Of a stretch of DNA of 64,000 nucleotides, positions 8,285 through 62,779 are shown one piece after another. The notes under the pieces were generated by a model. The model was not told where the DNA came from and did not search any database. It saw nothing but the letters and a program-made list of their open reading frames with translations. Source of the stretch: Tribonema minus (lineage: Eukaryota > Sar > Xanthophyceae > Tribonematales > Tribonemataceae). The stretch lies in the NCBI GenBank assembly GCA_017506865.1, contig JAFCMP010000031.1, positions 62,001-126,000 on the forward strand, given 5' to 3'. Each line of letters begins with the position of its first letter. Positions within the stretch are counted from its first letter, which is position 1. A program made the translations under genes and the position numbers.

Positions 8285-11200
8285 CTACTCCTGAGGCGGC
8301 GGCGCGCCATTTGCCAGCGCCCACTCCAGCAGCTCCACGAAGCCGCCGGCCGACGCCGCCTCCGTACAGGATGCGTCCCACGCGCAGCCATGCTCGCGCG
8401 CCCACTTGAGGACCATGAGGTGGTTGCCAGCGGCGGCGGCGCGCGTCGTGCGCTCGTCCCAGGGGCACCCGTGTGCGCGCGCGTACTGCAGCGCGTCCAG
8501 GTGGCCGCAGCCGGCCGCCTGCGTGGGGGAGGGGGGGGGGGGGAGGGTGTGGTCGGAGCGGTAGGGGTTGGGGGGGGGGGGGGGTAGGGCTGGTTTCGGG
8601 GGGGGGGGGGGTTGAGGGTGGTTGGAGGGTTAGGGTTGGGGGGGGGGGGGGTATAGGCCTGGTTCAGGGGAGCTGACATGCTGACAGCACCCCGCTGATG
8701 CGTGGATGCATGAGAGCCAAACCCTGGGAGTACGCACTGGCATCGGCATCGCGCATTGGCGGCCAGTGCGCGGGACTGCCCTTCAGTAACTTATTGAATG
8801 ACAGCACTGCGCAGTGCTCTACGCAGCGCTCTACGCAGCGCTCTATACGCACCGATCATGACGGCACACCATTGGGGAAGCTTTTGTAGCACACACGTGG
8901 GTGTCGCCGCGCGGCGTGACGGCAAGTCGAGGCAGTTGCACCCGCATCATAGGCGCAGCCGGCAAATCGCATACCCTTTTGTACTTCTCGATTGGGGCGC
9001 GAAAAAGCCCAGACGACCAACGTCAAGCTTGCAGACAGAGTTACCTGTACCCTCCGAGCCAGTGTAGCCAGCCTGATCGACGATCGCACTACAAAGAAGA
9101 CATCCACCACCAAGCGCTCTAAAAGTGCACTTTAATCACACTACAAAGATCACAACCATGCGCTTTGAAGTGCAGTTGCTTCAACTCACCGCTGAGCACA
9201 TGAGGCCGTCTCATGGGCACCCATTGCTGTGGAGCCACTGCAGCGTCTCCATGTGGCCGCCCTCGGCAGCGTACGCATCAGGCAGCACCTTCGCAGCATG
9301 CATGCATGAGTCGCGACGCGCAACGCTGCCACAACGGCGAGGCGAGGCAGGCACACATGCGCCCAGCACGCAAACCCAACGCATCACGCCCACTTCCTTC
9401 GACTCACCGCGGAGCACGTGAGGCCGTCCCACGGGCACCCGTTGGTGTGCAGCCACTGCAGCGTCTCCATGTGGCCGCCCTCGGCGGCGTACGCGCACGC
9501 GCGCGATCCCCACGGCGCGCCGTTCTCGCGCGCCCACTTGAGCACGTGCAGGTGTCCGCCTGCGGCCTGCGAAGGCGGCAGTTGTTGCAGCAGCAGGAGC
9601 AACTGATTTAGTGTCGGCATGCTCCATGGTGGACGACCGTTTCGGCGGCGACCGATAGGTGTGGCAGAGGCGCAGAAACGGCTTGACTGCGATTGAGGGA
9701 ACTCAGGCAAGCAACAGAGCTGCTGCTGCAGTGTACGGGGCGCACAGATGGAGCGTCGGCGCGTACCGGTCCCTGATTATCGCAGAGGCGCGGCTGCGAC
9801 TCGTCTGCGATTTGAGGGAAACCGTGTGCGCACACAGTCGACAGAGCTGCTGCTGCGTCGGACGCCATGCGCGCGCACCGACACTGCGCAGGAGGCGCGC
9901 CGCCGCGCCTGCCGCCGCGCCTGCCGCCACGCCTGCCGCCGTCACGGATCGGTTGCAAAATACCAACCGCATGCGATAGCACTGCTCAACAGGTGTGCGA
10001 GTGCAGGCCTCTGGTGATGTGATAGCTCTGAGGCCAATCACATCCTGCTGGCGTCGGTCGTGGGTGCCTTGTGTGCCTTTGGTGCACAGCCAAACCTGCA
10101 CGGCCCTCGCCCGACGGCTCGTGTGCGCTGTGAGTCAACTTGTGACGCGCCCACACAAAGCCCACACCGGCACATGATGAACTTCACTGCATCTACCAAT
10201 GGTCAGGCGATGCAACTTGCGTGCAGCGCCACGGCCCTTCGCGCCGGGCCAGCGGTGAGGACGGCGGGAATTGCGTCCACGCTAGCACCCCTGACGCACT
10301 GCCATCTAGGCAGCAATGCTCAACAAAGAAGCTTGCTCCCTCCCCCATCCAGTGACGGAGTTGAAACCTACAATTGCGGCGCATCATGTACATGACCATG
10401 TGTGCAGGCCATGCGCACTGGTCGGCCAGCTCAGCGTGACAGCGAGCAGCCGCGCGCGCCTCCCCGCATTGTTGACGCTCGTCACGTGCTAACCCTAATC
10501 CTAACCCTAAACCTAACCCTACCCCTAACTCTCATCCTGACCCTGACCCTAACCCTAACCCAACCCTCACCGCGTTGTTGACGCACGTCACGTCCCAGCG
10601 ACATCCGTTCTCGCGCAGCCACTTGAGTGTGCCCAGGTGGCCGCCCAGCGCCGCGTGGCTGCACGCGCACTCGTACCTGCGCGCGCGCCGCAACCGCAAG
10701 CGTGATTGTGAAGTGGCGGCGGGAGTTGGGCACGCAAGTGCTTGTTGTTTGGATTCTTGCTGGCATGGCAGTGCTCAGTGGGCGCACTCGCACCTGCCCG
10801 TGCCAAGCGGTCAAGCGCGAGATTGCATTCAAGCGCGTCTGCCGTTGCGGCAGGCCGAACGTGCAAGCTCCTGCTCGCGGAAGCCGGTGTGGTGAGGAGC
10901 TGCGAGCTGATTGCCAGGAACGTGCAGTCGATGTCCTCACCGTTACCCAAGAGCCGCTGAATGGGGAAGCAACCGATGAAGCATCGGCAACAAATGTGTG
11001 TGTCGCGCTCGTGACGCGCAGTCCGCATCCGCGGCCACGCACTGCTGACGCGTCCCTCTCGCGCAAAGCACAGTGGAAAAGGCGCATTGCCTGATCAGGG
11101 GCAGGGTACGCCCACTTGAGGCAGTCGAGCCTCTTTCGGTAACAGATGCGCCACAGGGCAACTGCTGCATTGCAACCGCGCTGCACTGCCTCAACCTCGC

Positions 11201-13368
11201 GCCAACGCGCAGGGCTGACACGCCCATCTCATGCATGCCAAGAAGAACAACATCGGAATGCAGCAAGGCTCACCAGGGGCAGCCGTTGGCGTACGCCCAC
11301 TTGAGGCACTCCAGCTGGTCCTCCAGCGCGGCATATGCGCACACGCGCTCGTCCCATGCCACGCCCCGCTCCCGCAGCCACTTCAGGACGTCCAGGTGGC
11401 CGCTGCTGGCTGTGCGCGGCGGCGGCGGCGGGCAGGCGGGCGCGCAGCGCGAGCGCGGAGCAGCAGCAAATGTGGTCAGTGCATGCGGTCGGCGGCGCGC
11501 GGCGGCGGGCGGCGCAGCTTGCGCGCGCTGCGCCGTGTGGAGCTCTGGCTGTATGACTGCACAGCCAAAGGCGGTTGAAGCTGAACCTTCAACTTCCACG
11601 GCCGAGTGAGCTGAGGACGTGTCACGTCGGACGGTCATCCAGCCCAATTGACGACAACAGTGACGGGCGTACTGCGCTGCAATGGACACGCAAAGAGGCA
11701 TCGCGAGACGGCACGGCACGCGCGCAAGCGTCCGTGCCAGCGACAGTGACTTCAACACTGAAGTTTGGCTGCAGCACTGCGCTTGTGGGCTGCCCTGCGC
11801 ACGACACGCCTCAGCTGCGGCCATGACGGCGCTCACAACAAACAACACTGCGGCTGCCTCTCAGCCTAGCGGTGGAGCGAAGTTGCGGTTGCCTCCACAG
11901 CCGTATGCAATCATCAATAGGTACACACAGACGTCTGCACGGCGTCAACCAGGCACGCCAGAAAAATGAACTCTCAATGACGTGACCGCAGCCGCTGGCA
12001 CTGCACGGGCGCGCCACGCAGCACGCCATCACGGCAAGCCACCTCCGAACAGCAGCAGCTGCTGCGAACGCGCGCCGCGCATATCTCAAACAGCATGGTG
12101 TTTTTGCAGCAGCTGCTGCTGCGAACGCGCGCCGCGCATATCTCAAACAGTATGGTGTTTTCTTCACACATAATGGGGGGCACGCCGTCATGCGCGCACT
12201 CGCCTGCGACGGCGCACGTCCACGCGTCCGTGGGGCACCCCTGCGCGTGCGCCCACTGCAGGACGTCCAGCAGCCCGCGCTCCGCCGCGGCGTGGCACGT
12301 GGTGGCGTCCCACGGGCAGCCGTTCGCGCGCAGCCACTGCAGCGTCTCCAGGTGGTTGCCCTTGGCCGCCGCGGCGCACACGGCTGCGCGGGCGGGCGGC
12401 AGACACACGACGAGCGGCGTCAGAGCGAGCATGACGCGCTGACGCATTGCACAGCGCGCAGAACGGCTCTTTTTGGTCTGTCTGTCTCGCTCTCTCTGCG
12501 GCGGCGCGCGCTATGTAACTGCAGGCTCCCGCTGACGCGAGTGCGCCGCCCGCTGCCGGCGTCAGCGCCGATGCGTCGCAGATGCATCACATGAAGGTGG
12601 CAAACATGGACGCTCATGCACGCCGAGCTGCTCATGTGCCACGCGGCGCACGCTGTAGCCCCAATGGTGTGGCGCGTATTTGATTGTACAGGTTGGCGAG
12701 GCAACTTGGTTGTGGCCTCACAGCGCAAGCGTTTTGATCCAAAGTACACTTTACTTGCACGGCGGTGACGCTGCGCGGAGCGTCACCTGCGTCCCACGGC
12801 CAGCCGCGGTCGCACCGATGCGTCGCTGATGCATCACATGAAGGTGGCAAGCGTCAGCGCTCGTGCACGCCAGGGTGCTCATGCGCCACACGGCGCAGCG
12901 CTGCGCGGAGCGTCACGCGCGGACACACGCGCAGCGCACAAAAGGTCGCGCATCAAGAACCACCACACATCTACCCTACGCGCTGCGTCAGAGCACGCAT
13001 CACGCGAAGCTGTCGAGCTGCGAGCCTCAACCCTCGCGTGTGCCACAATGCTCATGCGCCACGCGGCGCAGAGCTGCGCGGAGCGTCACCTGCGTCCCAC
13101 GGCCAGCCGCGGTCGCGCGCCCACGCGAGCACGTCGACGCGCCCCCCCAGCGCGGCCCAGCGGACGAAGCTGCCGTAGCGCTCCGGCGCGCCGCACGCGA
13201 GCGCCCAGCGCAGCAGCCCCACGGACGCGCACACGCGCTCGAGCGACGTGTGCTTGAAGCACGCGGCGGTGTAGACGTCGCGCCAGTTGCGCGAGACGAG
13301 CGCGACCTGGAGGTAGTGGCGTGGCCCGACGTACTGGAGGATGGTGGCCCAGACGTCCGGCCTCTCGC
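8285..13368 (-). CDS. F-box-like / ankyrin-type repeat protein, 5' exon not found
   Basis: Exons in transcript order: 13368-13090, 12383-12204, 11409-11274, 10676-10571, 9566-9408, 8518-8285 (stop TAG 8287-8285). Phases agree at every junction and give 363 codons. The first exon encodes VWATILQYVGPRHYLQVALV and SRNWRDVY, an F-box-like helix pair. The rest is a string of ~25-30-residue units such as HLETLQWLRANGCPWD, HLDVLKWLRERGVAWD and HLHVLKWARENGAPW, ankyrin-type repeats widespread in stramenopile genomes. The likely role is protein-protein recognition, perhaps substrate choice by an SCF ubiquitin ligase; that is inference from the domain pair. The 12383-12204 exon ends at a GC donor (GCA-G|gcgagt). 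No Met starts exon 1, and its acceptor implies an upstream exon; ATG at 13446 would need a frame change. A further exon-like copy at 9288-9190 carries a stop and is listed separately. Confidence 0.7.
8521..8652. repeat. G-homopolymer and GGGTT-rich tract inside ankyrin intron
   Basis: Repeated runs of 10-14 G on the plus strand are spaced by TAGGG, GGTTT and GTTAGGGTTGG. On the coding (minus) strand this is the poly-C tract leading into the acceptor of the terminal exon at 8518. Several G runs in series could form G-quadruplexes. Confidence 0.75.
8808..8850. repeat. Short tandem repeat CTCTACGCAGCG
   Basis: Three imperfect 12-13-bp copies lie head to tail within the last intron of the minus-strand ankyrin gene. 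No function is apparent. Confidence 0.6.
9190..9288 (-). pseudogene. Decayed duplicate of an ankyrin exon (premature stop)
   Basis: This 99-base segment copies the second half of the 9566-9408 exon, including GGHMETLQWLH, the GLMCSA end and the gtgagt donor. It has an AG before its first codon, so it could be spliced in phase. The TGG of the conserved NGCPWDG is TGA here, so inclusion would truncate the protein. Skipping it joins 9408 to 8518 in phase with a perfect repeat junction (CSA|AAGCGHLDALQ). It could be a poison exon or simply a dead duplicate. Confidence 0.65.
10458..10570. repeat. Degenerate TTAGGG array at an intron start, bounded by exon-edge copies
   Basis: From 10489 to 10563 the plus strand is an imperfect CCCTAA series (TTAGGG on the coding strand). 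It begins immediately inside the donor of exon 10676-10571 (gtgagggttggg...). On its far side, 10462-10488 repeats the exon's last bases (minus strand: GTGACGAGCGTCAACAATGCG against GTGACGTGCGTCAACAACGCG), but the donor GT is mutated to GG. Confidence 0.8.
11060..11190 (-). pseudogene. Decayed copy of the 11409-11274 ankyrin exon edge
   Basis: On the minus strand this reads ...CRLDCLKWAYPAPDQ-like sequence, sharing TGCCTCAAGTGGGCGTAC with the real exon end at 11274. The donor (gtgagc in the real exon) is replaced by atcagg. It lies in the intron directly downstream of the parent exon. Joining 11274 straight to 10676 keeps both phase and repeat register, so this copy is not needed. Confidence 0.55.
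12054..12165. repeat. 57-bp tandem duplication in ankyrin intron
   Basis: Two copies share GCGAACGCGCGCCGCGCATA and CTCAAACAGYATGGTGTTTT, starting at 12064 and 12121. They lie just downstream of the GC donor at 12203-12202. Read through without splicing they would encode a two-fold ILFEICAARVRS peptide ending at 11974. Confidence 0.8.
12566..13118. repeat. Tandem units carrying copies of the first exon's donor edge
   Basis: The exon-donor junction of the first ankyrin-gene exon (13073-13118 on the plus strand) is copied at 12766-12811. The shared flanking piece (ATGCATCACATGAAGGTGGC and CTCATGYGCCACRCGGCGCA) is present near 12580-12650, 12830-12905 and 13050-13075. The orphan copy at 12.77-12.81 keeps both the WPWDA codons and the gtgacg donor. 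Confidence 0.7.
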
Positions 13369-16768: not shown

Positions 16769-17510
16769 GCTGGCGAGCTTGCTTTGCAACCTGTGTCACA
16801 GGTTGTCTTCCTGAGTAGGATCCGAACTTTTTTACTGTTGAAGTAGGCTTTGTTGAAGTTGACAATTTCCTTGCAAGTGAGTGACGTGTGACCAAATTGC
16901 AAGGACCTCTTCATGTGTGTTTCTTGTGATTGCTCTTACGATCACATGCACACAGGGTGTTCATTGAACACTGGCCATAACCTGCAGGTGTTCAGATTCT
17001 TCAGCATGATGAATGGGACTGAGTGTCAGTGAGAGACTTCCAGATGCACATTTGCGAGCACATATATTGACTTATCCGACATGGTACAGCAGAATCGTAT
17101 AATCCCTCATCGCTGATTGTACACAAAGGTCCAGTGACGGCCACAGCCATCCTCACAGATTCTCACTGTGCCTTGGCGTTCGCAAGCCTTTGCAGTGAGT
17201 TCTTCAGCACGTGCATGAGGGCAGCAGTTGAAACAATCGCCAACAAGCACTGGCACAACATGTACAGCACCAAGCCGTTCGACAAACATGCTCACCACTT
17301 TGACAAACATGCTCACCACAACACACAATAGACCCTCGCCTATGGACCCTCACCTCGAGCTGGTCATGTTTTGCAGTTCAGCACACAAAGTGGAGAAGCA
17401 TACAATGTTGGGGTGTGTATAATGAGCAACTTCATGTAGATTAGGGTACGCAATAATACCTACTGTGATGCGACACTAGACATAACAGCCATGGCCGCTG
17501 AGCATTGAGC
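16769..17510. other. Intergenic: transporter promoter side and rhodanese 3' side
   Basis: No gene is seen. It contains a TTGAAGTTGA motif at 16853-16862 and an 18-bp direct repeat, GACAAACATGCTCACCAC, at 17281-17298 and 17302-17319. Base composition is visibly more AT-rich than in flanking exons. Confidence 0.5.
17281..17319. repeat. 18-bp direct repeat
   Basis: GACAAACATGCTCACCAC occurs twice with three bases between copies. It lies in the intergenic region and no function is apparent. Confidence 0.8.
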
Positions 17511-18340: not shown

Positions 18341-18565
18341 GTTGTCCAATCTTCGAAGCCAGATGTGTTTTCTCGCTTTTCGGACCTGCAGTTGAAGTTC
18401 GTCCTGGATCTTCTGTGTGTGTGTGGTCCACGTGGGGCATCCGCGAGAACAGGCACACATTAGCGATACGGTGGCTGCGAGGCCGCTATCCCCGTGCGCC
18501 TGGCCCGAAGGTACCTGCCAATTTTGCAGCAGCCCCTGAGACTACTGAGTCTGCTGGTTTGACAC
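18341..18565. promoter_or_regulatory. Shared divergent promoter region
   Basis: Only 225 bases separate the ATG of the plastid rhodanese gene (minus) from the ATG of the P5A ATPase (plus), so both promoters and 5' UTRs must fit here. I see no clear TATA box. This is inferred from gene geometry only. Confidence 0.5.
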
Positions 18566-21500
18566 ATGCGACATAAGCAACTGCTTGTGCTGGCGTGCAC
18601 CGCCCACTGCACAGGAGCTGCAGCCGTTAGAGGCGCAATAGCTGGCGGCAAGCCTTGCTTGCGACAACGCTCTCCATGGTCGCCAAGTTCACCCAGCGGA
18701 AACCACGCCGTCACTCTTAGAGGGGGTGCCGCTCGCAAGCTACCTCAACCAGATGCTGCTGATCCCACGTCCTTGGCTGCAGGCAACATCGAAAGCATCA
18801 CATTCCTCAAAGCCCGCTCGTACAGCAAAGCGGTCCACAGTTTCTTCCTCGTCATATACGCGCTCTGCGCCAAGCTGTGCCTGCAAAGCGTCGGGCAGCC
18901 CTTCAAAGCCGCAGTGCTGCAAGTGGCCAAGAAGCGGCTCCTGCAGCTCGCAAAGGACCGCGCGGCCACCTCCGCCAACGGCGGTGCCCTCCGCACAACA
19001 CCAACGCTGCGGACTTTGCGAGCGGACTTGATGGAGGAAATCGGAGCTGGCGGCGAGCTCGTGTCCGGCGTCTACGTCCCCCTCGCCTACATGCCGAGCC
19101 CCCTGGCGGCGCTGCTGCTGCTGAGCGCCGTCATGGCGCACACGCTGTTCGCGCTGGGGCAGCGCTGGTCCGTGCGGTTCCGCGCGCTCTGCGGCTACGC
19201 GCGCGCGCTCGACGCCGCGGACGCCGACGCCGTCCTGGTGCAGCCGGTCGCGCACTTCGGCGCGCCGGCGCTGTGCGCGCTGCAGCGCGAGGGCGCCGCT
19301 GCCGCGCAGAGCCGGCGCGATCGCAGCGGCAGCAGCGGCAGCAGCAGCGGCGATGACGGCGCGACTGCTGCATTGACGGATAGCGAGGAGGACACTGCCG
19401 AGGACGACAGCGGCGACGCTGCGGAGGGCGACAGCGGCAATGCTGCGGAGGGCGACGGGCGCGGCAGCAGTGAGGGGGAGGATGGCGCGCTGTTCTTCAC
19501 CTACCAGCGCCGGAAATTTCTGGTGCACCTTCCGGGCGATGGGCCGGACGCATTAGAGGGAGCAGCGCGCGGCGCCGCGCCGCACCGCTCTGCGTGCACC
19601 ATGGTGGACCTGCCCGTGGACCTGCCCGTGCAGCGCTACATAGAGGCGGCGGGGTTGGGGGCGGCGGAGGCGCGGCGGCGGCGCGCGCGCTACGGGCGCA
19701 ACAGCCTGCGCGTGCTGCCGCGCACGGTGCGCGGCACGTTCGTCGACAACGTGCTGGGCCCGTACAGCGTGTTTCAGCTGTTCTCGCAGGTGCGCGGCGC
19801 GTGCGCGCGCTTGCTGCTCTGTGTTGCGTGCAACAAATGAGGCGTCTGGACAGGTGGATATGTTCATGGGCTGCGAGGGCTGCGGCAGCAGGCGTTTGCC
19901 TGGCCTTGCATGCGCCGTGGTGGTGGCAGTGCAGCGCACTTTCCTGCGTGCGCGGACGGTCGCATGGCATCATGCGCTGCGGGTACTTGTGCCATAGCGC
20001 CGGCGTGCGCTCCGCATGCACCGCGCGCATATCACATGCCTGTTGCGCTGCGCCGATGGGGCGTCAAGCGCGCAGACGCGCCTGCTGCGCACGTGCACGC
20101 GAGAGCTGCGCCGTCTGCGCCGCCGTGCGCTTGGAATGCGCCTCAAGGCCGCCGCCGACGCTGCCACTGCATGTGAGGGCAGTCACCACGCGTCTCTCAG
20201 CGCATGGCCCAGTAACATCACGAGATCGCGGTGAACGCGCCACCGCTGCAACCACTTTTGTCGCCCGCCCCCGCCACGTGGCAGGAAATCAGTCACTGCA
20301 CCCAGAGGCCGTGCATTCGGAACTGACAGACATGAGCCTGGGTGCGCCTGCCCCCCCCCCCCTGTGCGCGGCTGAAGAAAACCGTGTGCTGAAGTGCTAT
20401 TGCTCTGTGCGCCTGCAGCTGCTGGGCGTGCTGGAGCAGCACTGGGCGCACGCGGCCATGTCCGCGGGGTTCACGCTCGCGTCGGAGTGGACCGCCGCGT
20501 ACGAGGCGCTGGCCAGGTGCGATGCGGCAGCGCTCCGCAGCGCGTGAGCGCTTGCGCTTTGCAGGGACGGCTCGTTGGCTGCTGGAACTGCGACGCGCGC
20601 TCTTGCCGTACTTGTTGAGAGGAGGCGCTCGCCGGGTGATGCAGCAGTGCTCCACAACGTGCTCGACCCCGGCGAACATGATACAGCTGGTCTGCTGCCT
20701 GCGCTCTTGCCATACTGTTCTGCTGACCGGTGCGGCGAGTTTACGGGACACTGCAGGATGCAGACAGGCTGAGCGCTGCTGCCCGATTCCACTTATGCTG
20801 GGGCTCTCTGCCGCGCTGAACTGCACATCGGCCATTGCAGCGAAACAGTTTGCATTCTCTGAGTCTGACCTCTCTGTCAATGACACAAACTCCGTCGCTG
20901 TGAGTGAGTGTACGGCTGCCGCACTGCGTGCAGCGACTAGCGCATTGTGATGCCGCTCGCGTTCCAGGGAGGCAGGCCCACATACATATGACATGCTCCT
21001 GTCGGCGCGCTTGCATCGATGCGTTGTCGTCATGCACGCGGCCAGACTTGTGCATGAGGCCTGCGCTCCGAGCCCCCTGCTGACCCATGTACACCCTGCC
21101 CGCCCGCCACCGCGCCGCGGACATCCCGCGCTGCGGTCGACTGATGCAGCACACCCACAGGCACTGCCAACTTACCTGCCATATGCACTCATTGAAGCCT
21201 CATACGCTGCCCCCTCACATGCGTGCATGCTGTATGAAGTACATGCACATCGTGTGCACGTGCTCGCGCGAGCGGCGCGCACTACGCCCCGCGTTCGCGC
21301 TGCCATGGCTCCAAGCTGCTGTTTCTTGTGAGGTACACACTTGTATACCTATCGTAGCGGCATGCGCTATGCCGCCACATTCACCCCCACGCACATGCCA
21401 CACAAAACTCATTGACGCAGTATGGGCTGCGCATTACGCACCGCGTTGGCGCTGCCGCAGCTCCAAGCTGCTGAGCGCTCACCAGGCCCGTCTTCTTCTC

Positions 21501-24500
21501 TGAAGCACCCGCTTCCATACTCATCTCTAGTACTTCGAAGTATGGGGCGTGCGCTACGCCGACACATTCTCCCGTACGTACATGCCATACACAACAATAT
21601 GCGCACCGTGCTCGCTCGCTGCCGCAGCTCCAAGCTGCTGAGCGCCGACCAGGCCCGTCTACTTGTTTGTGAGGGGATACGCTGGTAAACTCGCCATCGT
21701 GGTATGCACTACGCCGCCACATTCACCCCTACCCACATGCCACACATTCTCATTGCGGTAACATGCTCTGTCGCATTGCGCATTGCGCCCCGCACTCACG
21801 CTGCCGCGTTGCGCTCCGCACTCGCTGTGCCGCAGCTCCAAGCTGCTCAGCGCTGACCAGGCCGCGCGCGGCGGCCGCCCCGTGCAGTGCTGGCGCGACG
21901 GCGCCTGGGCCGAGCTGCCGTCGGAGCAGCTCGTGCCGGGAGACGTCATGGCGCTGGCGCCTGAGGGATCTCCCATGGAGCTGCCGGCTGACATGGTGAG
22001 CGCTGCTGCCGCTGTGCTGTTGTGCCCCCCCCCCCCCCTGGTCGTGTGCAGCGCGTGACAGCGGACCCTGGGGGCCTCGAAAAGAGTTCAGCAGGCTTCT
22101 TTTTTTTGGGGGGGGGCGGGGCGCGGGGGGGCATTGGGCAGGGGGCCTTGGCCGATGGGGGGTATGGCCCGCTGGCCAGCAATTGCCATCCTGAGGTTCG
22201 GCTTGTGAATGCGTTTGACGCGCTCGAAGCTAGGATGTGCTTGTTGTATGCGGGTGACATCTGGTCTCACATCGGCAGCTCCTGCATGCATGTATGTGTG
22301 TACAGAGCAAAAAAAAAAAAGGGGGGGGGGGGGGCATACCATGTCTGATGTCTCAACAGGCGTACCATGGTCATCACAGCCGCAGCTTACACCCCTCCAT
22401 GGTATTTGGCTCGATGGTGAGGTGTTGACAAGTGTCAGGCTGTGATCACGACAGCCGCCTCAGTACCGACTTCACGAAGAATTGTGAGTGCGTGCAGCCA
22501 AAATGCCCTGGTAGAAGCCACACCCATGTGTCAGGTCACTCCCAGTCGTGCCCCGCACATCAGTTTAGGTAAGGGTTCCCCCAATTGTAGCCCTTGGATA
22601 CACAGCAGCGCGCTCACCCCTGCAGGCTCACCCTGAAAACCTGCAGCACGGCCACGCCCCTGCTCGCCGTGACTCGTGACGTTTCTGACTCTGACTCCGA
22701 CTTCTGATTTGTGACTGCCGACTCCAGGTCGTCCTCCGCGGCTCCGCGCTGGTGGACGAGGCGACGCTAACGGGCGAGGGCGTGCCGCAGATGAAGGCCA
22801 GCCTGCTGAGCGCCGTGTTCGACGAGGGCGCCGCGCTTGACGTCGCGCGCGCGCACCGCACGCACGCGCTCTTCGCCGGCACCACGCTGCTGCAGACGAC
22901 GTGAGCTCTACGGTCTTTTGTTTTGTTTCCGTGAGGAGCACAGGACCGCCGCCATTGCGTCTAGGAGAGTGTGCGCGGCGGCGGGTGGTTGTGGCGCCGC
23001 CATGCCGTGCTGTGCGCGATGTGACGCGGGTTTCGCGCGTGCTCGCAGCGGGCGCGTTTTGCTGCCGCTCGCGGGCGTATTGGGCGCTGGTTGGGCGGCC
23101 TGCGCCGGGCTGCGCTTATCACATTCTAGGTGGTGTCTGCGTAGTGGAATATGCAGTGCACGCTGTCGTGGCGGCGTGGCGCTGCGGCATGGCATGGGCT
23201 ATGCCAAGCCTGCGCAAGTGTGTTCATAATGAGTTCCGAGGTGGTACTCACGATGGGGGGGAAGCTCACATTAAGCAGGAAGCTCTGATGAGCAGGGAAC
23301 CGGCCACTGCTTGCGTGCATCTGCTGACGAGGGTGCGACGCGCGTTGCGCCGCGGCCGAAGCGAAGGCCACATTAGCCTCTGGTGGTCTCCTCCGAATGC
23401 GCTTGTGAACTGCGTCACCATGCCGACAGGTATGACGCGCCGGCTTGACGTGCTGCTTGGCAGGTCGCCATGTGAGCGCGTCACGGGAGGCACTCAGTTG
23501 CGCAAGAAGAGCGGTGTCAACTGAGCTGTTGTACACAATGTCGCGGTGGCCAGCATACCCTGTGCTTCTCGCAGGCGTCGGGCAGCGCGTGCTGTTGTGC
23601 ACCCTCTTGTGAAGGCCTCTTTGCCCATTGTCACTGAGCTAAGCCGTCCCACAGCCCACGTGCCAGAGGCACGCCGGCGCCGCGCTAGCGCCGAGCGGCG
23701 CCTGCCCTGACCCTAGCCCTAACCCATGGCGTGCGCGCGCGCTGCAATGCGCCGTGAATGTGACATCCATGAGCCATCCCCACACGCAATTGGCTTCCGG
23801 GCTCATATCACACTTAGCCATCCACTGCGTCCCCCATCCTACCCCTCTGACGACGCTCTGACGCGATGGTGCGCCGCCGCCGCCGCCGCCACCGCTGCGC
23901 CTCTCTGACACGATTGTGCGCCACCGCCACCGCCGCTGCCGCCGCTGCTGCTGCCGCCGCTGCGCGCATGCAGGCCCGGCGCTGATGAGGAGCCGCCGCA
24001 CGAGTGGCGCCTGCCGCGCGCGCCGCCCCCCGGCGGCGGCTGCCTGGCGTACGTCCTGCGCACGGGGTTCTACAGCAGCCAGGGGGACCTGCTGCGCATG
24101 ACAGAGGGGCTGGGCGGCGGCTACAGGTATGTATGTAGGTATATGTATGGGTTCTTGCGGGGCAATCACGTATCTGGCTGCTGCGGGGGTGACCGAGGGA
24201 TTGGGCGGCGCCTATGATGTTGGTACTCGCGGTACTGGCATGGGGGTATCTGGGGTTGGCGTCGGTCTGGCCCCAGGGGCCCCCGCGGCGACTGCAGAGG
24301 CGATGTGCGCGTGTTTGCCGCCGCGGTGCGATGGGCGTATACAGGGGGGGAACTGGGACCACGTCACAGCACGCTGCTTAGGGTTAGGGTTAGCGCGTTA
24401 CTGCGACAGCGCTGAACGAGCGCCGCTCGCGCGTGTGTGTGTGCGTGCGTGCGTGCGTGCGTGCATCTGCTGTGCGGCGACGGGAGTTGCCTGGACAGCC

Positions 24501-45800: not shown

Positions 45801-47929
45801 CATATGACTGGGGGCGCACCAGTTGCTGCAGCTGCCGCAGCAGCGAGCGCAACAGCGAGCACTGTGCACCCACGGTCGGTGCAGCGACGCGTCGGTGCCG
45901 CTGAACCCTCCGCGCCTGCGCTACTGCGTCTGACACACGCCGCGCCGCGCCGCCACTGCCTCTCCCCGCAGGCGCGGCGACGCCGGCTACGCGCTGGTGT
46001 TGGACAAGCGCCAGTGCCCGCGCTGCGGCGCCACGCAGTCGTACGACGAGTTCAAGGAGAAGCGCAAGCAGTGCCCCAACTGCCACGAGGCGTACCGGCG
46101 CCCGCGCGTGTGGGCTGCGGTGCGCCGCCGCTTCCTGGCGCGGCTGCACGCGTTCGAGGCGGCGCGCGCCGCCAACGCCGCGGCGGCGGCAGCGGCGGCG
46201 GCGGCGGGCGATGCTCAGCAGTCCGGCGACGGAGTTCAGGTGAAGTGCACATGGCGCACCTATGACCCAGATTGGTCACACAGTAACATGGTGAGCATGA
46301 GAAGAGCTTTTCCCTGGCCTAATGCATTCTTGTTCGACGCGGCGCGCGCCGCCAACGCCGCCGCGGCGGCGGCGGTGGCGGCGGCCGCGGCGGGCGATGC
46401 TCAGCAGTCCGGCGATGGCGCTCAGGTGATGCACAAATGTGCGCCTTTGATGCACAGTGCAACACACGTGCACTAAGCATGGTAGTGCATCCTCTGGGAT
46501 GAACGCATTTGTTTCCTGACGGGACGCACCTCAGTGACACAGTGCGCGCGAGCAGATACGCTGCTTATACTCATGGCTTGCTGATGAAGTACACCACTGT
46601 CATACGACATGAAGATTCCTTACAGCTAGATGCCAATCATCTGGGCTTTTTCGCGCCCTGAGCGAGCATTAATGAAAAGTACACCACTAGGATATCGCGT
46701 GCGGCCCCTCAAGCAAGAGTGAAGGTTATTCATCGAGTACCAAGCAATGGCCACGCTGTCAACCGCAGGGCGCCGCGTCACACCTGCTTTCCCTGAAGAC
46801 TGCACGAACGTGGCAGCGGCAGCCGCGATGGCTGCGGTGGCAGCGCTCAGTAGGCGCCGCCTCAGCGCTCCGACGACACCGCTGAGGTCCGTTGTGCGCG
46901 TGCACACACACCATCAGTGCTGGAACGCACCTCGCGCTGCGACCTGCTTTCGGCTTCCTGGTGCTGCAGTAGTTGAACATGTGAGTGCATGTACCGCTGC
47001 GGTTGAAAACTTGTATGCGATGCGAGCCGTCTGGCGTGGCTGAATCACCTGTCTCATTCTCGCAGGGCGCCACGGCAGACGGCGGCGACCGGCTCACGTG
47101 GGACGAAGTCGGCGCGGCGTTTTTGGTGAGGCTCGAGGACGACCTGGACCGGCGGCGCGAGTGGCAAGAGGCCAACTGGGAGGGGCTCGACCCGGCGGTT
47201 TACACGTTCAGGTGGGTGGATGCGGAGCTGGCATGCCCGGTGCTGACGCATGCAAGCAATGAATTCAGCTATTTATGTCTCGATGGAGCGAGGGGCCCTA
47301 TAGCGTCGGTGCCGCACAGGCAGCGGAGCGCCGCGGCGTGCTGCCGCGTGCTCCATCATTGTCCACCGATGAAAGTGTGTGCCGCCGCTTTCTGTCAGAT
47401 TGGGTGAGCCGCCTGCCGTCACCAGCCCTTCCAGCTCGGGTCTTCCAGCTCGCGCCGCGGCCTGTCGATGCAAGTGCCAAGCTTCTCTGATGCTGCTGCT
47501 GCTGCCTCGATCACTCCGCAACCACGCGTCACGTCGTTCGCTGCCGTGCGCAGGCCGCAAGTCAACGCCGCAGCGCTCAGCGACGCGAGCCCGTACCGCG
47601 ACATGACGTTCGCGCAGCGCACCGCGGCGGACCTGCAGCGGCGCAGGGGCCGCCCCCCCGCGCCGGCCTCCGATCTGGACTCCACGCCTCCTTCCCGGCG
47701 AGACAACAGCCTCAGCAGGGGCGCCTACTCAGAGGGCCCCCTGACGGCGCCGCCGCGCCACCGCGCGCAGCAGCAGCAGCAGCACTCAGCGTCGGCGCGC
47801 ATCATCAGCGGGGGGCTGAAGGACACCGCTGCGAGCGCCGTAGGCGGATCGGAGGGCCGATCGGCGCAGCAGCGGCGGGCCGCGCAGCACGGGGCGCGCG
47901 GCCCGCGGCGGCGGCTCGCCTTTGAATGA
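39814..47929 (+). CDS. Zinc-ribbon, coiled-coil protein of unknown function (at least 10 exons)
   Basis: Proposed exons: 39814-40346, 41262-41368, 42105-42251, 42849-42887, 44012-44119, 44626-45063, 45318-45454, 45972-46239, 47066-47211, 47554-47929 (~765 residues). Phases agree after one base is removed from a CAG/CGG-rich stretch near 39935-39985. The start reads MSRGGMTYQSVPALAPNVFR. Middle exons are Ala/Arg/Glu-rich helices (e.g. RAVRAEAAADSLRAAALRAQ) suited to coiled coils. Exons 7-8 hold a zinc ribbon CPRCG...KQCPNC (C-x2-C-x16-C-x2-C), and the C-terminus has WDEVGAAFLVRLEDDLDRRR and VYTFRPQVNAAALS, a 'YTFxPxI' pattern seen in cytoskeletal or ciliary coiled-coil proteins of protists. 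I do not recognise a named protein. The intron after exon 7 starts with GC (AG|gcaagc). The 39-base exon 4 is the least certain. Confidence 0.65.
41519..41562 (+). repeat. Copy of exon-2 donor edge in zinc-ribbon gene intron 2
   Basis: ATGCTGCTGGC(T)GGCGCAG followed by gtgcgtgccgcgc repeats 41351-41385, the real exon end and donor. The copy lies about 165 bases downstream in the intron and has one inserted base. Confidence 0.8.
43130..43580. repeat. Scattered TTAGGG-like tracts in zinc-ribbon gene intron 4
   Basis: Short runs such as GGTTAGGTTT (43137), AAGGTTAGGGTCGAGGG (~43155), GGGTTAAGGTTAGGGTTGGG (43395-43414) and AAGGTTAGGGTTGG plus CCTAGGGTTAGCC (43537-43576) occur in the 1.1-kb intron. 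All run in the same direction as the gene. Confidence 0.75.
46240..46425 (+). repeat. In-frame 186-bp duplication of exon 8 end and donor
   Basis: The last ~90 bases of exon 8 (FEAARAANAAAA...GDAQQSGDGVQ plus gtgaag) recur at about 46333-46425 (FDAARAANAAAA...GDAQQSGDGAQ plus gtgatg). The frame stays open from the first donor to the second (62 codons), so using either donor keeps the reading frame. Confidence 0.85.
46599..46676 (+). mobile_element. 5'-truncated copy of the 0.8-6.3 kb retrotransposon tail
   Basis: Starting at GTCATACGACAT the sequence matches 6239-6320 of the full element with only about three differences, ending in the same ATTAATRAAAAG tail. It is flanked by AAGTACACCACT at 46587-46598 and 46677-46688, a 12-bp target-site duplication (its first bases are shared with the tail by microhomology). 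Only the 3' UTR is present. It sits in intron 8 of the zinc-ribbon gene, in sense orientation. Confidence 0.9.
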
Positions 47930-55900: not shown

Positions 55901-58900
55901 AGTTTCTCTGCCAGAGTAGTTGCCGCCTCGTTCGTACAGTCGATGGCGCTATCATGCGCAGCGCCCTGCAACGTGTCTGTGGCGCGCGCGCTCAGGCACG
56001 CGCCGCCGCCGCCGTGAAGAAGACGCAAGCGGCCAGCGGCTGGTGCGAAGTGCAGCGATGCTCAGCAGAGGCCGGCGAGCTGCGTATGCGGTCGATCGGC
56101 GGGCCATGAGACGGCGCGCCGAGTCTGCTGCCATCTGCTGTTGGCTGCCGTTGAAGCCTGCACCGCTGTGGCCTCTGCCGGCGGCGCGTAACACACGCGT
56201 GTCAGCGCAAACGCTGTTGAAAAGTGCAAGTTTTGCAGCGTTGTTTGACGATGACGTCTCGTCACCGGCACCCTCCTCTGCCGCACGCTGCGCCTGTCAT
56301 TGGCGGCCGTGGCGCCTCCGCCGCCGGGTGCGCGCGCGCGCCGCCGCCTCTCGCCGCGCCGCACGCCGCCACCGCCATCACCGCTGATCTTCTCATCGCT
56401 CAGACAGTACAGTCGAAGTGCACGCTTATCCACACCCATTTCTCGTACCTCACCTTTCCCAGCATGCCCCCACCCCCCCTTCCCCCTGCTCGCCGCCCCT
56501 GCCGCGCCGCTGCAGAGGACGTGCGCGCGGTGCTGGAGGCGCTGGTGCAGCACGGCGCGCCGGACCGCATACTGGTGGACGGCAAGGTGAGGGGACGCTC
56601 GCCGAGACGGTCACTGCACCGCATTGTGTCGCCTACTTGTGGCATGCGCTGTGGATGTCATCTGAGCGCTGATGTTGCACGGTGCTGGCAGTGCGTCGTC
56701 ATACAGTGGCTTGCATTGGCGGGTACCGCTTCTTGCTGCAGCATCAACCACCCTGTTGGGATCTGATGAGCTTCCATTTGCAAGTAACATGGCACAGGCC
56801 CACGGCAGATGCGGCGCCCGCTTTGCAAGCGTGTCCTGCCCGCGCCACCGGCCCTATGCACCGTTGATGATGCAGAAGTACACAAACTTTTTCTAGTCTT
56901 CTACCAATGCTATACACCACGTTGGCCTAGGACCCCATGAAGTCTTCAGAATCTCTCAGCAACATCTTGTCTCGCCGTGTGGTGCCATGGATCGCTTGAC
57001 TCCATCGCCCACACCTTCACCGGCCGTTGCTGACGCCTGGTCTGCCGCCTTGCGTCGCCGCGCGCGCAGCCGCATCTCGGGACCGACCGGCTCGTGCGCA
57101 TCCTGCGCGGCATGCGGCAGTACCTGCAGGAGCTCGGCGCCGAGTACAGGTTTGGCACGTGTGTGAAGGACGTCGTCGTGAGGGGCGGCAAGGTGGGGGC
57201 TCTTCACGGACTCATATGTTCACAGCAGCACGAGTCCATTCCATTGACATGAAGCCGCTACAAAATAAACTCCAATACGCAATGAGAAGCTCTGACCACA
57301 TCTCGACACGGGTTCTTTCTGTCGATGTATCTGCTCATCAGCGAACTTCAATATGCTATGAGTAGCTCGCGCGAATCTATGCTGCGCCGGCAGCCGCGGC
57401 ACTAGTGAGCGGCGCGTGGCCTCGTTACGCGACACAATGCTCAGCTCTGAGACGCTTGCGGGACGTACACAAAGCTGCACGGGGAGCCACGACGCGCACA
57501 GCGGAAGCGAAATCACCAGCGAGTGCCCCCTGCAGAGCATACGTGGTTGCACGAGCAGGCAGGCGTCGCCCGCTGCCTTGCGGCGCAGCTGTGCTTGATC
57601 AGTACATGGCGTGCACAGGCTTGGTGCCTCGCTCGACCAGCGCGGCCTCTGGCAGTGCACGCGCATCACCGCAAGTTCGCGTGCATGACGCGCAGTGCGC
57701 GTATGCAATCAAGCAGCCTGACGTCTCAATATATGCAGCGTGAATCGCAGTGGAGCGTAGCATCAGCACTTCGCTCTGTGTGTTTGCCCCCCCCCCGATC
57801 ATCCACCCCCGCTGCGCAGGTCACGGGCGTGGAGCTAACGGACGGCACCGTGCTGCCCGCCGACGCCGTCGTCCTGGGCATTGGCCACAGCGCGCGGCCC
57901 CTCTACGAGAGGCTGCTGGATGGGGGGCTGCATCTGGAGCCAAAGGTGCGGCAGCTCTCTGCGCGCGCGCGCACGCCCATTTTGTGTCGCGCAGCATCGT
58001 CGCAGGTGTGCGCACGGGATGTCTCTGCGGAGCCGTGGCTGCGCGCACCCATCTGCGACTACACGCAAGTGAGCACTGCCGCAGGTGTCTGCGCGTGCCG
58101 CCGTCGCCGCGCGCACGGTGCGAAGGCGGACCTGGGGATGCGAGTTCAGTGGAATTGGCACGCAGGCGTTCAAGCTGATGAGCGCTGAGCACGGTTGTGA
58201 GGCCCTCACCCGCAACCGAGTCTCGCCACCGCCGCGCAGTCCCAGGCATGCATAACTTGTCGTGCTGCCATTGCTGGTGCTGCTGTGCGTCTCGCTCGCA
58301 AACAGTGTCCTGCCTCCGGCGCACTGTCCTGGGCGTCCTCGACCACGGTGCTGGCGTTTTTGACGCGGCCACGCGTAGTGCGTGCGCGACACGTGCTGCG
58401 GCGGCTGACGCTGCTGCCTGCATCTTCTGCTGCTGCCGTATCTGCCGCGCGCGCCGCAGGGCATCGCCGTGGGGTTCCGCGTGGAGCACCCGCAGGACCT
58501 GATTGACTACATACAGTACGGCGCGTTTTCCGCAGAGGTATGTAGGTACAGGCGCTCTGTCAGCGTTAGGGCTGGGGTTGGGGTTGGGGTTTTTCTCTCG
58601 TGCGAGCGCACTTGACTCCATACAGTACGGCGCGCTCTCCGCAGAGGTATGTAGGTACAGGCGCTCTGTTGGGGTTGGGGTTAAGTTTAGGCTTTTTTCC
58701 TCGTACAGAAAGAGGCAAGCATGTGCTTCTAGAAGTACTCATGTATCGCGAGGTTGTGCGTCGTTTCGCCCGCGCGCTTCATCCGCTGGCAGACGCCACG
58801 GGCGAGCGGCAGCGGTTTCTTGGCGTCCAGGGCTCCGCGCCGCCTCTGCCGCGGCAACCGCCGCAGCAGCAGCAGAGCACACAGCAAGAGCACGCGATGA

Positions 58901-61900
58901 CCCTTTGGCGCTCCATTTTCTGGCCTGCATGCTTCAGCTTCAACTCTGAATATGTGTTGAATGAGCCGTGCGTCGACCCACACGCCACACATGCAGAGCA
59001 CTGCGTAGCACGAAGCCCGGCGGTGCCCGCCGCATGCCACAGGCTGTCACGCTCCACGAACACGCCCTCGCGGCAGGCGGCGGCAGTCCTGCACCAGCCC
59101 TGACGCGCCGCGCCACGCCACGCTCCCCTCGTGACGTCACCTCCCCTCGCGCCACCTGTCCACGCAGGCGCTGCGCATCACGCCGTGCGCCTACCCACAC
59201 ATCACACTCGCAGAGCGTTACGCAGGCGCTCGCCACCGATTGCACACAAACATGCATATGTCAAAGCGGCTGGCGGCATCAGTCGTGTGCAAACTCGACA
59301 CGCCCCCCAAACTTCTTCCCCCTCCCCTTCCTTCCCCCCTAGGTGCTGCGCGGCAAGGGCCCCGTGCCCGTGGCGGACTACAAGCTGGTGGCGGACCTCG
59401 GCGGCGGGCGCGCGTGCTACAGCTTCTGCATGTGCCCCGGCGGGCAGATCGTGCCCACGAGCGTGGACCCACGCGAGGTCTGCGTCAACGGCATGAGGTC
59501 AGCGCTCGACTGCAGCAGCCGCCGCCGCCGCCGCGCTGCGCTGCGCGAGTGCCTATGCAGTGCCGCTGCTGGTGTACGGTGGTCGTGATCTGCAATAACA
59601 ACAGTAATAAGGTCTGCGTCAACGGGATGAGGTCAGCGCTCGACGGCGACCGCCGCCGTTGCTGCCGCGGTGCGCCGCGCTAGTGTCTTTGCACTGCCGC
59701 CGCTGGTGCATTGTGGCCCTCGGCTACGTCGTGCCCTCCATTGTTGGCAGCTGCAGCAGCACTGAAGCGTGGGAGGGGTCGCTGCGCGCCGTGCTGCGTT
59801 GCGATGCCGCCGCCGGGCCCATGCATCTTCTCGCGCTTGCGTCGTTGCAACGCGCGTTCTGTGCCCCACGATGTGCCGCTTCAGTGCTCACCTGCGCAGT
59901 GCCGCGGCGTTGTTGCCATGCGTCGCTGGCAGGCATGTGGCTGTTCAGAGGAGTGTGCGGATCTCCCGTCCAGACAGGCTTTAATTAGGCCATGGTGCCC
60001 ACATCCAGCACGGGCCCGACTCGTCATGTTCCAGCCTCATTTAGCGGTCGAAGCGCTTGTGCTGAGTTATCGCTTCGGAGTGCGCCGCGAGCTTTGCAGC
60101 GCAGAAATGCAGTTATGAGAGCGGCGAAAAGAGTGCGACCTTCGATGCGCTCGCCGACGCCACATCCCAACAGCAAGATGTACACCGGCACATTGTTCAC
60201 CCATCCAGGTTGCACTTGAGTTGCCACCTAGCGCCTGCGAAGCCGAGCACGACCTCGCCATCATCACCTCTGCGTTGCTTTTGGTGTTGTCCCGGGCGTT
60301 GCAGCTTCTCCAAGCGCGGCAGCAAGTGGGCCAACAGCGCGCTGGTGGTCAACATCAGCCCCGATGACATGCGGGACTTCGGCGGCGACGGCCCGCTGCG
60401 GGGGGTCTACTGGCAGCAGGTATGTAGGTGTGCCTGACACATTTCGACTCTCTGTACAGCACACAGGAGACCTGAGCTATCTGATGCAAGAAGGGCGGAT
60501 GCGTTAACGCATTGCCGCAGGCATAGTCACCGCGTTTGCGCATGCATGGCGTCACTCCCCATGCCCGTCGTGAGCTCGGCCGCTGAACTGCACGCCGCCG
60601 CTGCCGCCGCTGCGCCGCTGCCGCCGCCAACGCCGCTGCCGCTGCGTCGCCGCAGGCGGATGGATGCGCCTCGCTTTCCTCACGCAAGCACGCTCGCGCC
60701 CTTCAGTGTTTCATGCCAGCGCATCTCGAGTCACCGCCTACGCACCAGGCCATTCGTGCCGCCACGCTCGCTCTCGTCGCGGTCTGCGTCGCCACGCACA
60801 TTGTGCCTGGGTAGCATCAATCGACATACCCGCCGCGAGCTCGGCCGCTAAACTGCACGCCGCCTCCGCCGCCGCTGCCGCGCCGCAGGAGATGGAGCGC
60901 CGTGCCGCGCGCGCGGGCGGCGGCGACCTGGTGGCGCCCGTGCAAACCGTTCCCGACTTTTTGAGCGGTGCTGCCGAGCCGAGCGCGCCGCTGCCGACCA
61001 GCAGCTACCGCCTCGGCGTGCGCGCGGCGCCGCTGCACGAGCTGTACCCAGGTGGGGCTTGGCTTTGCGCGGCGACTCGTGCGCGCGGCGTCGCACGAGT
61101 TTCTGGCGCACGTGCCGCTGCCGCTGCAGCCGTGGGTAGGAAGCTGGCTGCCCTTTGCAGACAATCGGGCCTGTTGATTCAGTCCAGGATATGAGGCACT
61201 GCTTCATGGCGTGTTCATGCAGGAAGGTTCGGCCGGTGTCGGCGGTGCCTCGAGCGTGAACGAGTGAAGTTGTTCACAAGCAGATGAGCGTCTCCATGAC
61301 GCGATCCGTCTCACCCTTGTGTGCCACCGAGGTCTGCAAGAAATGGGCAATGAGATGCGACAGCCGCATTCCCAATGCCACAGCAGAGCACCGCCACAGC
61401 GCGGGAGCATAGCGGAAGGCTTTCACTGAAGCTGCTGCGGCGGCGACGCGCCCGCTTCAACTTGCATACATAGCGCGAGCGTCATGCGCTTCAGTCACAG
61501 CATCGACTGTGGCGCGTTCACCACATTGTACCACTCGCAGCACCACCTTGAGTGCGTGCGCATGTGCGTTGACCCCCCCTGCGGCGGCGGCGCGCCCGCT
61601 TCACTTGCGTACATCACGTGAGCGTCACGCGCTTCAGTCAACAGCATCACGTGTGCAACCGAGACCCCCGCCCGCTCCCTCTCTGCACCCGTGCAGCTGC
61701 CGTCACGCAGGGCCTGAAAGACGCGCTGGCGGCCTTTGAGGCGCGCCTGCCGGGCTTTGCGACATCGCCCGCGGCGCTGCTGCACGGCGTGGAGACGCGA
61801 ACGTCGGCGCCCGTGCAGATCGCGCGCGACGCCGCGTCGCTGCAGTGCGTCAGCGCTCAGGCCCTGTACCCCACGGGTGAGCGCACGCGCGTAGCGTAGT

Positions 61901-62779
61901 GCGGGATCAGCGGGATGTGGCTGAGGAAGTTGAAGTTGATGCTGTCTGTGACGCGGCTGAACCTCGGCTCTAGGGTTACGGTTGGCTGACGGCGCAGCCT
62001 TCAGCAGGATGCATAGCGTGCCGTGGCGGCTGACAAGGGTGTGGCATCACTGCAGGACCGTGCCACATACTGGCAACTCTGCCCTGGGGGGTGAGAAACA
62101 CCACGCCGCTGCACCATTCAGCCCTTGCGTGTAGCATGAGTTGCATTGCGGAGCCACTGACTTTGCTACACAGCATCAGTGCTCCGGGCTTGGTGTCGCG
62201 GACGGTGTGGTTAGAGGTGACAGACAGGAGGCAATCACGGGTTCGCTGACCGCCGCGCATTCGGCGTGCAGGCAGTGCCACGATGCGGCAGGCTTTGCGC
62301 AGCTGCATTGCATCAGCGGCGCGCACATTTTCACGGTCAATGATGTGAGCGAGGCATGTCTCAACAAGGTGTTGTGCATTGCCCTGTGAGAGTTGCGGTG
62401 ATGCTGAGGAGAGCAGGGGTTGAGGCTCAACACGCACATACCATGTGCAGCTGCACCGGTATCCGGCGCAGCGAGGTACTGCTCGCTGGCGCCATGGCCA
62501 TGTGTTAACCCTTTGATATCTACACACACAGCACATTGCGCGGCACCGCCCCTCGCAGTTTGTGTGCCACTACGATTGTGTGCTTTCTTTGCGCAGAGTA
62601 CTAATCACGCACATCATCTCTGCTGCCCCCCCCCTGCAGGCGAGGGCGCAGGATACGCCGGCGGCATAGTGAGCGCAGCTGTGGACGGTGCACGTGTGGG
62701 GCGCGCTGTCGTGGCAGCACTTGCTGCGTTCCGGCCCGCTGCTGGTGCTGCTGCTGCAGCTGCTGACACCAGTTCATGA
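52983..62779 (+). CDS. FAD-dependent oxidoreductase, COG2509 type, 14 exons
   Basis: Exons: 52983-53107, 53808-54001, 54207-54418, 54813-54913, 55787-55863, 56516-56586, 57070-57192, 57820-57945, 58460-58537, 59343-59497, 60305-60419, 60889-61051, 61697-61876, 62640-62779. All phases fit and total 619 residues plus stop. Landmarks: VPLSRDP and VRKSFDGRWKKDG before the flavin domain; dinucleotide-binding VLVVGSGPAGLFAALALAQ (GSGPAG 163-168) followed by ILERG; GESNLCYGEGGAGTWSDGKL; GTDRLVRILRGMRQYL; DAVVLGIGHSARPLYE; GFRVEHPQDLID; CMCPGGQIVP; KWANSALVVNIS; GVETRTSAPVQI; C-terminal GEGAGYAGGIVSAAVDG (574-590). This is the widespread COG2509 family of predicted FAD dehydrogenases; the plant member is needed for normal plastid pigmentation. 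The electron donor and substrate are unknown. The first exon (MRSGVVRSAAADSVVWQVAR) is chosen only on phase and position; it is Arg/Ala/Ser-rich like an organelle presequence and could be wrong. Confidence 0.85.
53763..53790. repeat. (CTG)9 microsatellite before the exon-2 acceptor
   Basis: About nine CTG units lie 18-45 bases upstream of the CCTGCAG acceptor of FAD gene exon 2. The pyrimidine content of the repeat may substitute for a polypyrimidine tract. Confidence 0.8.
58502..58692 (+). repeat. Tandem duplication of exon-9 donor edge with TTAGGG/GGGGTT tract
   Basis: CATACAGTACGGCGCG..TCCGCAGAG plus gtatgtaggtacaggcg is present at the real junction (58510-58556) and again at 58619-58665. 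Each copy is followed by a GGGTTGGGGTT-type tract with TTAGGG pieces. The copy keeps both the exon sequence and a perfect donor. Confidence 0.9.
59478..59650 (+). repeat. Duplicated exon-10 donor edge
   Basis: AGGTCTGCGTCAACGGCATG with AG|gtcagcgctcgac ends exon 10 at 59497. AAGGTCTGCGTCAACGGGATG with the same donor recurs at 59610-59645. Downstream sequence (CGCCGCCG...GCGCTG) is also duplicated, with a period of about 134 bases. Confidence 0.85.
60568..60905 (+). repeat. Duplicated acceptor region of exon 12
   Basis: GAGCTCGGCCGCTRAACTGC and the following GCCGCC-rich run with GCCGCAG appear at 60573-60657 and 60837-60888. The second copy forms the real acceptor (GCCGCAG|GAGATGGAGCG); the first ends in GCCGCAG|GCGGATGGATGCG. 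Confidence 0.8.
61433..61655. repeat. Tandem duplication inside FAD gene intron 12
   Basis: Two ~75-base copies, 61433-61505 and 61580-61655, share GCGCGCCCGCTTCA, TACAT and GCGCTTCAGTCA. Neither copy crosses a splice junction. Confidence 0.75.

What the first reader, a model, noticed from the sequence alone, without database searches (positions are those of the whole stretch)
8285..62779. Recurrent duplication of exon-intron junctions inside introns
In at least twelve introns of four genes I find, within the intron, one or more extra copies of a sequence that crosses the neighbouring splice junction: exon edge plus donor (12.77, 11.1, 10.46, 9.2, 35.87, 41.52, 46.33, 58.62, 59.61 kb) or acceptor plus exon start (21.3-21.7, 30.3, 60.6 kb). 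The copies range from near perfect to decayed (splice site lost, stop codon acquired). Tandem genomic duplication across an AG|GT proto-splice site is a proposed route to new introns. Here it looks like a continuing, genome-wide process, which would explain how nearly 20 kb of gene can hold ~4.6 kb of coding sequence. I consider this the most interesting signal in the window.
Basis: partly seen in the sequence, partly recalled or inferred. Interest (0 to 1): 0.75.

Follow-up and report, generated by a model that had tools for sequence, protein, structure and literature searches.

The report
Local tandem duplications crossing splice junctions
In a yellow-green alga, short stretches of DNA are often copied next to themselves; many copies span an exon-intron border and then decay inside the intron, lengthening introns a little without visibly creating new ones.

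Summary
The observation largely holds. The window lies in a 158 Mb genome, very probably Tribonema minus (Xanthophyceae). A copy of sequence next to a splice junction is found at all 12 named positions: seven donor copies and the acceptor array at 21.3-21.7 kb are clear, two donor copies are decayed, and two acceptor cases (30.3, 60.6 kb) are mainly intronic repeats ending near the acceptor. They are direct duplications; reverse-complement controls give almost none. But they are not peculiar to junctions: local direct copies are as dense in mid-intron (47 of 810 sampled 40-mers) and intergenic DNA (33 of 528). Intron birth is not supported: the two ends of one intron are no more alike in register than random pairs (223 introns). 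Best reading: ordinary tandem duplications, spaced about 70-400 bp, tolerated where splicing ignores the extra copy, then eroded. One annotated protein uses a copy as a mini-exon behind an 88-nt intron; RNA must decide.

The parts
13020..13116 (-). Original exon end + donor, ankyrin-type gene (last exon base 13090)
12760..12813 (-). Donor copy, GT kept (exon part 27/27, intron part 24/26)
12555..12655 (-). Further intronic copy, pairs with 12803-12903 (83%)
11079..11130 (-). Decayed copy of exon end + donor of junction 11274; GT lost
   Evidence: 33/35 exon part, score 24 v best shuffle 20
10459..10487 (-). Decayed copy of exon end + donor of junction 10571; GT now GG
   Evidence: 26/29, targeted alignment without shuffles
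9173..9276 (-). Donor copy of 9391-9494 (89%), GT kept, in-frame stop acquired
   Evidence: sequence
21277..21664 (+). Three upstream copies of acceptor + exon start in the P5-type ATPase gene (original 21810-21863, first exon base 21836); the outermost is not significant alone
   Evidence: junction agrees with homologues
30217..30401 (+). Tandem repeat (97-98 bp) whose last unit lies just before the acceptor of the exon starting at 30420; mainly intronic, GCC-rich
35875..35956 (+). Copy of exon end + donor of junction 35627; donor lost (CT)
   Evidence: 50/57 exon part
41486..41563 (+). Copy of exon end + donor of junction 41368, GT kept
46332..46435 (+). Copy of 46152-46251 (86%) with donor (original last exon base 46239, copy 46425); gene finder calls it an exon as well
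58503..58601 (+). First unit: exon end + donor, FAD oxidoreductase gene (last exon base 58537)
   Evidence: homologues continue across this junction
58612..58704 (+). Second unit of the 109-bp tandem duplication; annotated protein P0155 uses 58626-58646 as an exon behind an 88-nt intron (58538-58625)
59610..59716 (+). Copy of 59476-59582 (exon end + donor, last exon base 59497), GT kept; not used in the annotated protein
60536..60621 (+). Intronic repeat of 60801-60886, which ends at the acceptor of the exon starting at 60889; AG not kept

Best explanation
The copies are products of ordinary small tandem duplications (spacing about 70-400 bp, median 155 bp) that occur in genes and between genes alike. 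Those in introns, between genes, or across a junction are tolerated, because splicing keeps using the original site (the first donor, the last acceptor) and the extra copy falls inside the intron. There it decays by substitutions, insertions and deletions, so an old pair becomes separated. A 100-200 bp unit placed at random in such intron-dense genes often spans a junction, and one copy of its exon half is held by selection, so junction-crossing pairs stay recognisable longer than purely intronic ones. Shown: the copies, their occurrence in four contigs, direct orientation, like background in introns and between genes, contiguity of the youngest pairs. Inferred: selection and neutral decay as the filter, and which site is spliced.
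For: Direct v inverted pairs 40-700 bp apart: 135 v 3. Share of 40-mers with a copy within 400 bp at score 20 or more: mid-intron 47/810, intergenic 33/528; reverse-complement control 0 and 2. Contiguity falls with age: of loci at 90% identity or more 8 of 9 are contiguous, of those at 80-90% 11 of 34, Fisher p = 0.006 (43 of 70 loci used, those at 80% or more). Mismatches in the exon part of 27 junction copies by codon position: 45/386, 46/389, 60/387, so no clear coding constraint on the copies, only a mild third-position surplus. In 5 of 6 whole-genome searches the duplicates match only their own locus, apart from one related ankyrin repeat in the same gene; the sixth is.
Against: Junction loci exceed random placement within their block: 31 of 70 seen, 19.0 expected (one copy on a junction 19 v 15.2, p = 0.16; both 12 v 3.8, reached in 0 of 300 permutations). 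At strict identity (32 of 40 or more) donors have 9/187 v 6/810 mid-intron, more than I can fully assign to slower decay. Exon and intron parts of the copies differ less (87.0% v 83.7%) than a simple 1:2 decay predicts, though local alignment trims the difference. Removal of exon-only duplications is weakly shown: 1 locus v 4.6 expected, p = 0.057, while exon-interior 40-mers have copies at the background rate (12/218). Junctions come from a self-trained gene finder without RNA support.
Confidence: 0.72

Rival explanations
1. Intron creation by tandem duplication across AG|GT: duplicating an exonic AGGT segment makes a new intron as long as the unit.
For: Local duplications do cross junctions. 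The annotated protein P0155 implies an 88-nt intron (58538-58625) within the 109-bp duplication at 58.5 kb and keeps seven codons of the copy as an exon, like the 'imprecise' outcome described in PMC3443670 (passage).
Against: No in-register likeness of donor and acceptor surroundings in 223 introns (shifted registers not tested). Here the duplications contain a junction already present and enlarge the intron. The 7 homologues aligned lack the 7-residue insert, and P0155 carries two further inserts absent from them, so it may be over-predicted.
Confidence: 0.08
2. The copies are working alternative or repeated exons rather than debris.
For: Splice dinucleotide kept in 23 of 27 copies in the four contigs; 12 loci have both copies on predicted junctions; the 46.33 kb copy is open and called an exon.
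Against: Mismatches are nearly even over codon positions. Stops in the 9.2 and 21.4 kb copies; splice sites lost at 11.1, 10.46 and 35.87 kb. Seven homologues of the FAD gene lack copy-derived residues.
Confidence: 0.12
3. Donor-selective process (can coexist with the best explanation): duplications spanning 5' splice sites are formed or tolerated more than others, for instance because the first-transcribed donor wins while a duplicated acceptor would be used too early.
For: At 32 of 40 or more: donor 9/187, acceptor 0/167, mid-intron 6/810 (donor v mid-intron p = 0.0004, donor v acceptor p = 0.004). At score 20, donor 24/187 v mid-intron 47/810, p = 0.001; outside the window 16/136 v 37/581, p = 0.028.
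Against: Donor and acceptor do not differ at score 20 (24/187 v 15/167, p = 0.31). Longer junction-crossing copies are equally many (14 donor, 13 acceptor). Positions 90 bp inside the intron reach 19/215 (donor side) and 18/205 (acceptor side) at score 20, so the peak is not sharp there. Intergenic DNA also holds near-perfect copies (15/528 at 32). Thresholds were inspected after the fact; the Fisher tests ignore clustering by gene.
Confidence: 0.2
4. Introners or another dispersed mobile element that carries splice sites.
For: Many introns affected.
Against: Duplicates match only their own locus in 5 of 6 whole-genome searches. The sixth (46252-46435) has nine further matches of 36-72 bp on seven contigs, which I read as GCG-rich coding sequence, not a family. 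The search scores only the best candidates, so counts are lower bounds.
Confidence: 0.02

Closest known systems
Internal gene duplication (Gao and Lynch 2009, PNAS; content recalled, title seen as a reference in PMC4974935 and PMC3443670; the paper is not held)
   Same: Small duplications within genes, across introns and exons, some activating latent splice sites.
   Different: Here 19 of 42 gene models (45%) carry a local duplicate against 8-17% of genes in six genomes as I recall that abstract; methods differ, so the comparison is loose.
Tandem genomic duplication model of intron gain (Rogers 1989 and Hellsten 2011, known here through PMC4974935 and PMC3443670; passages read)
   Same: Tandem duplication touching splice signals; the 58.5 kb case resembles the imprecise variant.
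   Different: Units contain an existing junction and end up inside an existing intron; no sign of new introns.
Introners (PMC9860276; one passage read)
   Same: Intron-associated repeats.
   Different: No dispersed family found.

Membership tests
Local tandem (internal gene) duplication | Direct copies close together, not dispersed | tested here: met
   135 direct v 3 inverted pairs; own locus only in 5 of 6 searches
Local tandem (internal gene) duplication | Young copies contiguous head to tail | tested here: met
   8 of 9 loci at 90% identity or more contiguous
Tandem-duplication intron gain | 5' and 3' intron boundaries lie in two copies of one exon segment | tested here: not met
   223 introns, no in-register excess over re-paired ends; one annotated case at 58.5 kb is not proven
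Tandem-duplication intron gain | New intron spliced in RNA | not testable with these tools
   No RNA data; annotation alone suggests one case
Introners | Many near-identical copies in introns of unrelated genes | tested here: not met
   (six duplicates searched)
Functional duplicated exons | Coding constraint on the copy (third-position bias) | tested here: inconclusive
   45/386, 46/389, 60/387 mismatches by codon position over 27 pooled copies: no clear bias overall, but single open copies such as 46.33 kb are not excluded

The most novel reading that the evidence does not exclude
Duplication here is coupled to 5' splice sites: donor-spanning tandem duplications are tolerated (or made) far more than acceptor-spanning or mid-intron ones because co-transcriptional splicing picks the first donor, so the genome keeps laying down spare exon-donor modules that now and then become mini-exons with new introns, as annotated at 58.5 kb.
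Probability: 0.15. Interest if true: 0.65.

Novelty: new member of a known kind. Interest (0 to 1): 0.4.

Why it matters
It gives a genome in which small duplications are frequent enough to watch how splicing filters them: which splice site wins when two stand side by side, how fast the spare copy decays, and whether any becomes a new exon or intron. It also warns that annotated proteins of this species may contain residues taken from intronic copies.

Tried and rejected
Tried: self-alignment of the window and 250 kb more; a self-trained gene finder (one search failed on a Python path, worked); one-sided junction test, two-sided test, gene bootstrap, split inside/outside the window, strict thresholds, permutation of loci, in-register intron-birth test, codon-position test, contiguity, dispersed-family searches. 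One search was useless: my search region contained the query's own flank; one search replaced it.

Rejected: introners; assembly duplication (copies too diverged); chance (shuffles and reverse-complement controls); repeats of the ankyrin domain as the sole cause (other affected genes encode an ATPase, an FAD oxidoreductase, an SNF2 helicase, a calreticulin-type protein, a kinase).

Weak points: the gene finder fused the MFS transporter to the ankyrin gene, the P5-type ATPase to its neighbour (and cut it in two), and cut false introns into the reverse-transcriptase ORF; these were left in all counts. It was checked by Pfam on 4 pieces chosen for recognisable motifs out of 10 printed proteins, and by homologues for the FAD and ATPase genes. 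Filters that dropped rows: introns under 200 bp (65 of 287), 40-mers of low triplet entropy, BLAST pairs below 50 bits or low entropy, introns with very short exons (223 of 287 kept), copies scoring under 32 or with under 12 aligned bases on either side. Score thresholds were chosen while looking at the data. The Fisher tests v mid-intron are one-sided.

Papers: PMC4974935, PMC3443670 and PMC9860276 by found passages only; all other papers by search listing with the start of the abstract. Gao and Lynch 2009 and Hellsten 2011 not held. I saw no paper on such duplications in Tribonema in searches; that is no proof of absence. The ankyrin-type name and the label P5A (Pfam match below its cut-off) rest on motifs and recall.
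Full report
What the window is. It is C31:62001-126000 of a 158 Mb genome in 554 contigs. C31 is 449,771 bases long, the contig length listed for protein JKP88DRAFT_352619 of Tribonema minus, nearly all of whose residues map exactly to the window. So the source is very probably that yellow-green alga. Genes, by homology or Pfam: a reverse-transcriptase ORF (2158-6210), an ankyrin-type gene (8.2-13.4 kb, minus; name from motifs), an MFS transporter (15.3-16.8 kb, minus), a P5-type ATPase (18.6-38.3 kb), an unnamed gene (39-48 kb), and an FAD oxidoreductase (53.6-63.9 kb as annotated).

The copies are there. Self-alignment shows local direct repeats at 9.2/9.4, 12.6-13.1, 21.3-21.9, 30.2/30.3, 46.2/46.3, 58.5/58.6, 59.5/59.6, 60.5/60.8 and 61.4/61.6 kb. 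In 11 of 12 introns the copy beats all 200 shuffles; at 10.46 kb the best match was a telomere-like tract and the intended copy was found by a separate alignment. 30.3 and 60.6 kb are mainly intronic. Seven homologues continue across the junctions at 58537, 59497 and 60419/60889, and homologues of the ATPase fit the junctions around 21836 and 30420 without residues from the copies.

How common it is. I fetched 250 kb more and trained a small gene finder on all 314 kb: 42 genes of 300 coding bases or more, 287 introns, median 472 bp. Pfam supports 4 of 4 pieces tested, chosen for recognisable motifs (S5, SNF2, kinase, calreticulin). Its errors are listed under tried and rejected. Direct pairs 40-700 bp apart outnumber inverted ones 135 to 3 and fall into 70 distinct loci: 17 intergenic, 19 intronic, 31 touching a junction, 1 exonic, 2 mixed. 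19 of 42 genes hold at least one pair.

Are junctions special? Two-sided test at score 20: donor 24/187, acceptor 15/167, mid-intron 47/810, intergenic 33/528, exon 12/218; reverse-complement hits 0, 0, 0, 2, 0. Neighbouring positions are also raised: 30 bp into the exon from the donor 15/149, 90 bp into the intron 19/215 (donor side) and 18/205 (acceptor side), so the peak is broad at this score. Acceptors alone are not significant (p = 0.09). Resampling genes, junction over mid-intron is 1.87 (1.07-3.23); the chance of a ratio of 1 or less is 0.015, of 1.33 or less 0.11. 1.33 is my rough figure for slower decay when half of one copy is under selection. Outside the window the ratio is 1.7 (28/258 v 37/581, p = 0.02). 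Among near-perfect copies (32 of 40) donors have 9/187, acceptors 0/167, mid-intron 6/810, intergenic 15/528, exon 3/218. So there is a real but modest junction excess, strongest at donors; how much is decay bias cannot be settled with this sample.

Not intron birth. If introns arose by duplication of AG|GT, sequence around the donor would resemble that around the acceptor of the same intron. In 223 introns it does not (only the exact register was tested). The duplications add to existing introns. Their detected share is modest: intron coverage is 4.0%, 17.9%, 7.4% and 9.3% in the four blocks, and 708 of 19,698 bases of the ATPase gene. Older, unrecognisable ones may have added more.

Mechanism. 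Young pairs are head to tail and older ones are more often separated (8 of 9 v 11 of 34 contiguous, p = 0.006), as expected of tandem duplication followed by insertions and deletions. Codon positions in the exon halves of 27 copies differ little (45/386, 46/389, 60/387), so the copies as a set are not held as coding sequence. Splice dinucleotides survive in 23 of 27; identity near 85% per base would leave about 19-20 by my reckoning, but alignments that span the site are favoured.

The one odd case. The annotated protein contains YGALSAE, encoded by 58626-58646, in the second unit of the 109-bp duplication (the next residue V can be read from either side of the junction, so the 21-nt length is my reading). 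That would need an 88-nt intron from GTATGT to CATACAG. Seven homologues lack these residues, and the same model has two other inserts they lack, so over-prediction is likely; if RNA confirms it, this is a new intron made by duplication.

Noticed in passing
window 6236-6323 and 46596-46683: 88 bp just after the reverse-transcriptase ORF recur at 96.6% identity in a predicted intron of the 39-48 kb gene, probably a truncated LINE-type insertion.
   Followed up: no
window 10489-10563, 24376-24395, 30817-30833, 31519-31536 and others: Telomere-like TTAGGG tracts: 28 in 314 kb, 26 in predicted introns, 2 intergenic, 0 in exons; 0.6 in shuffles; other hexamers of the same composition 1-21. Intron v intergenic per base p = 0.0006.
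   Followed up: partly
window 29378-29891: A 514-bp imperfect palindrome (65%) inside an intron of the P5-type ATPase gene.
   Followed up: no
window 55939-56082 and 58009-58068: Annotated protein JKP88DRAFT_352619 has segments of about 48 and 20 residues absent from the 7 homologues aligned; likely intron read as exon.
   Followed up: partly
L010-L015 (C5:100001-160000): Several genes in this block are unusually rich in local duplicates (21 pairs in one gene); intron coverage 17.9%.
   Followed up: no
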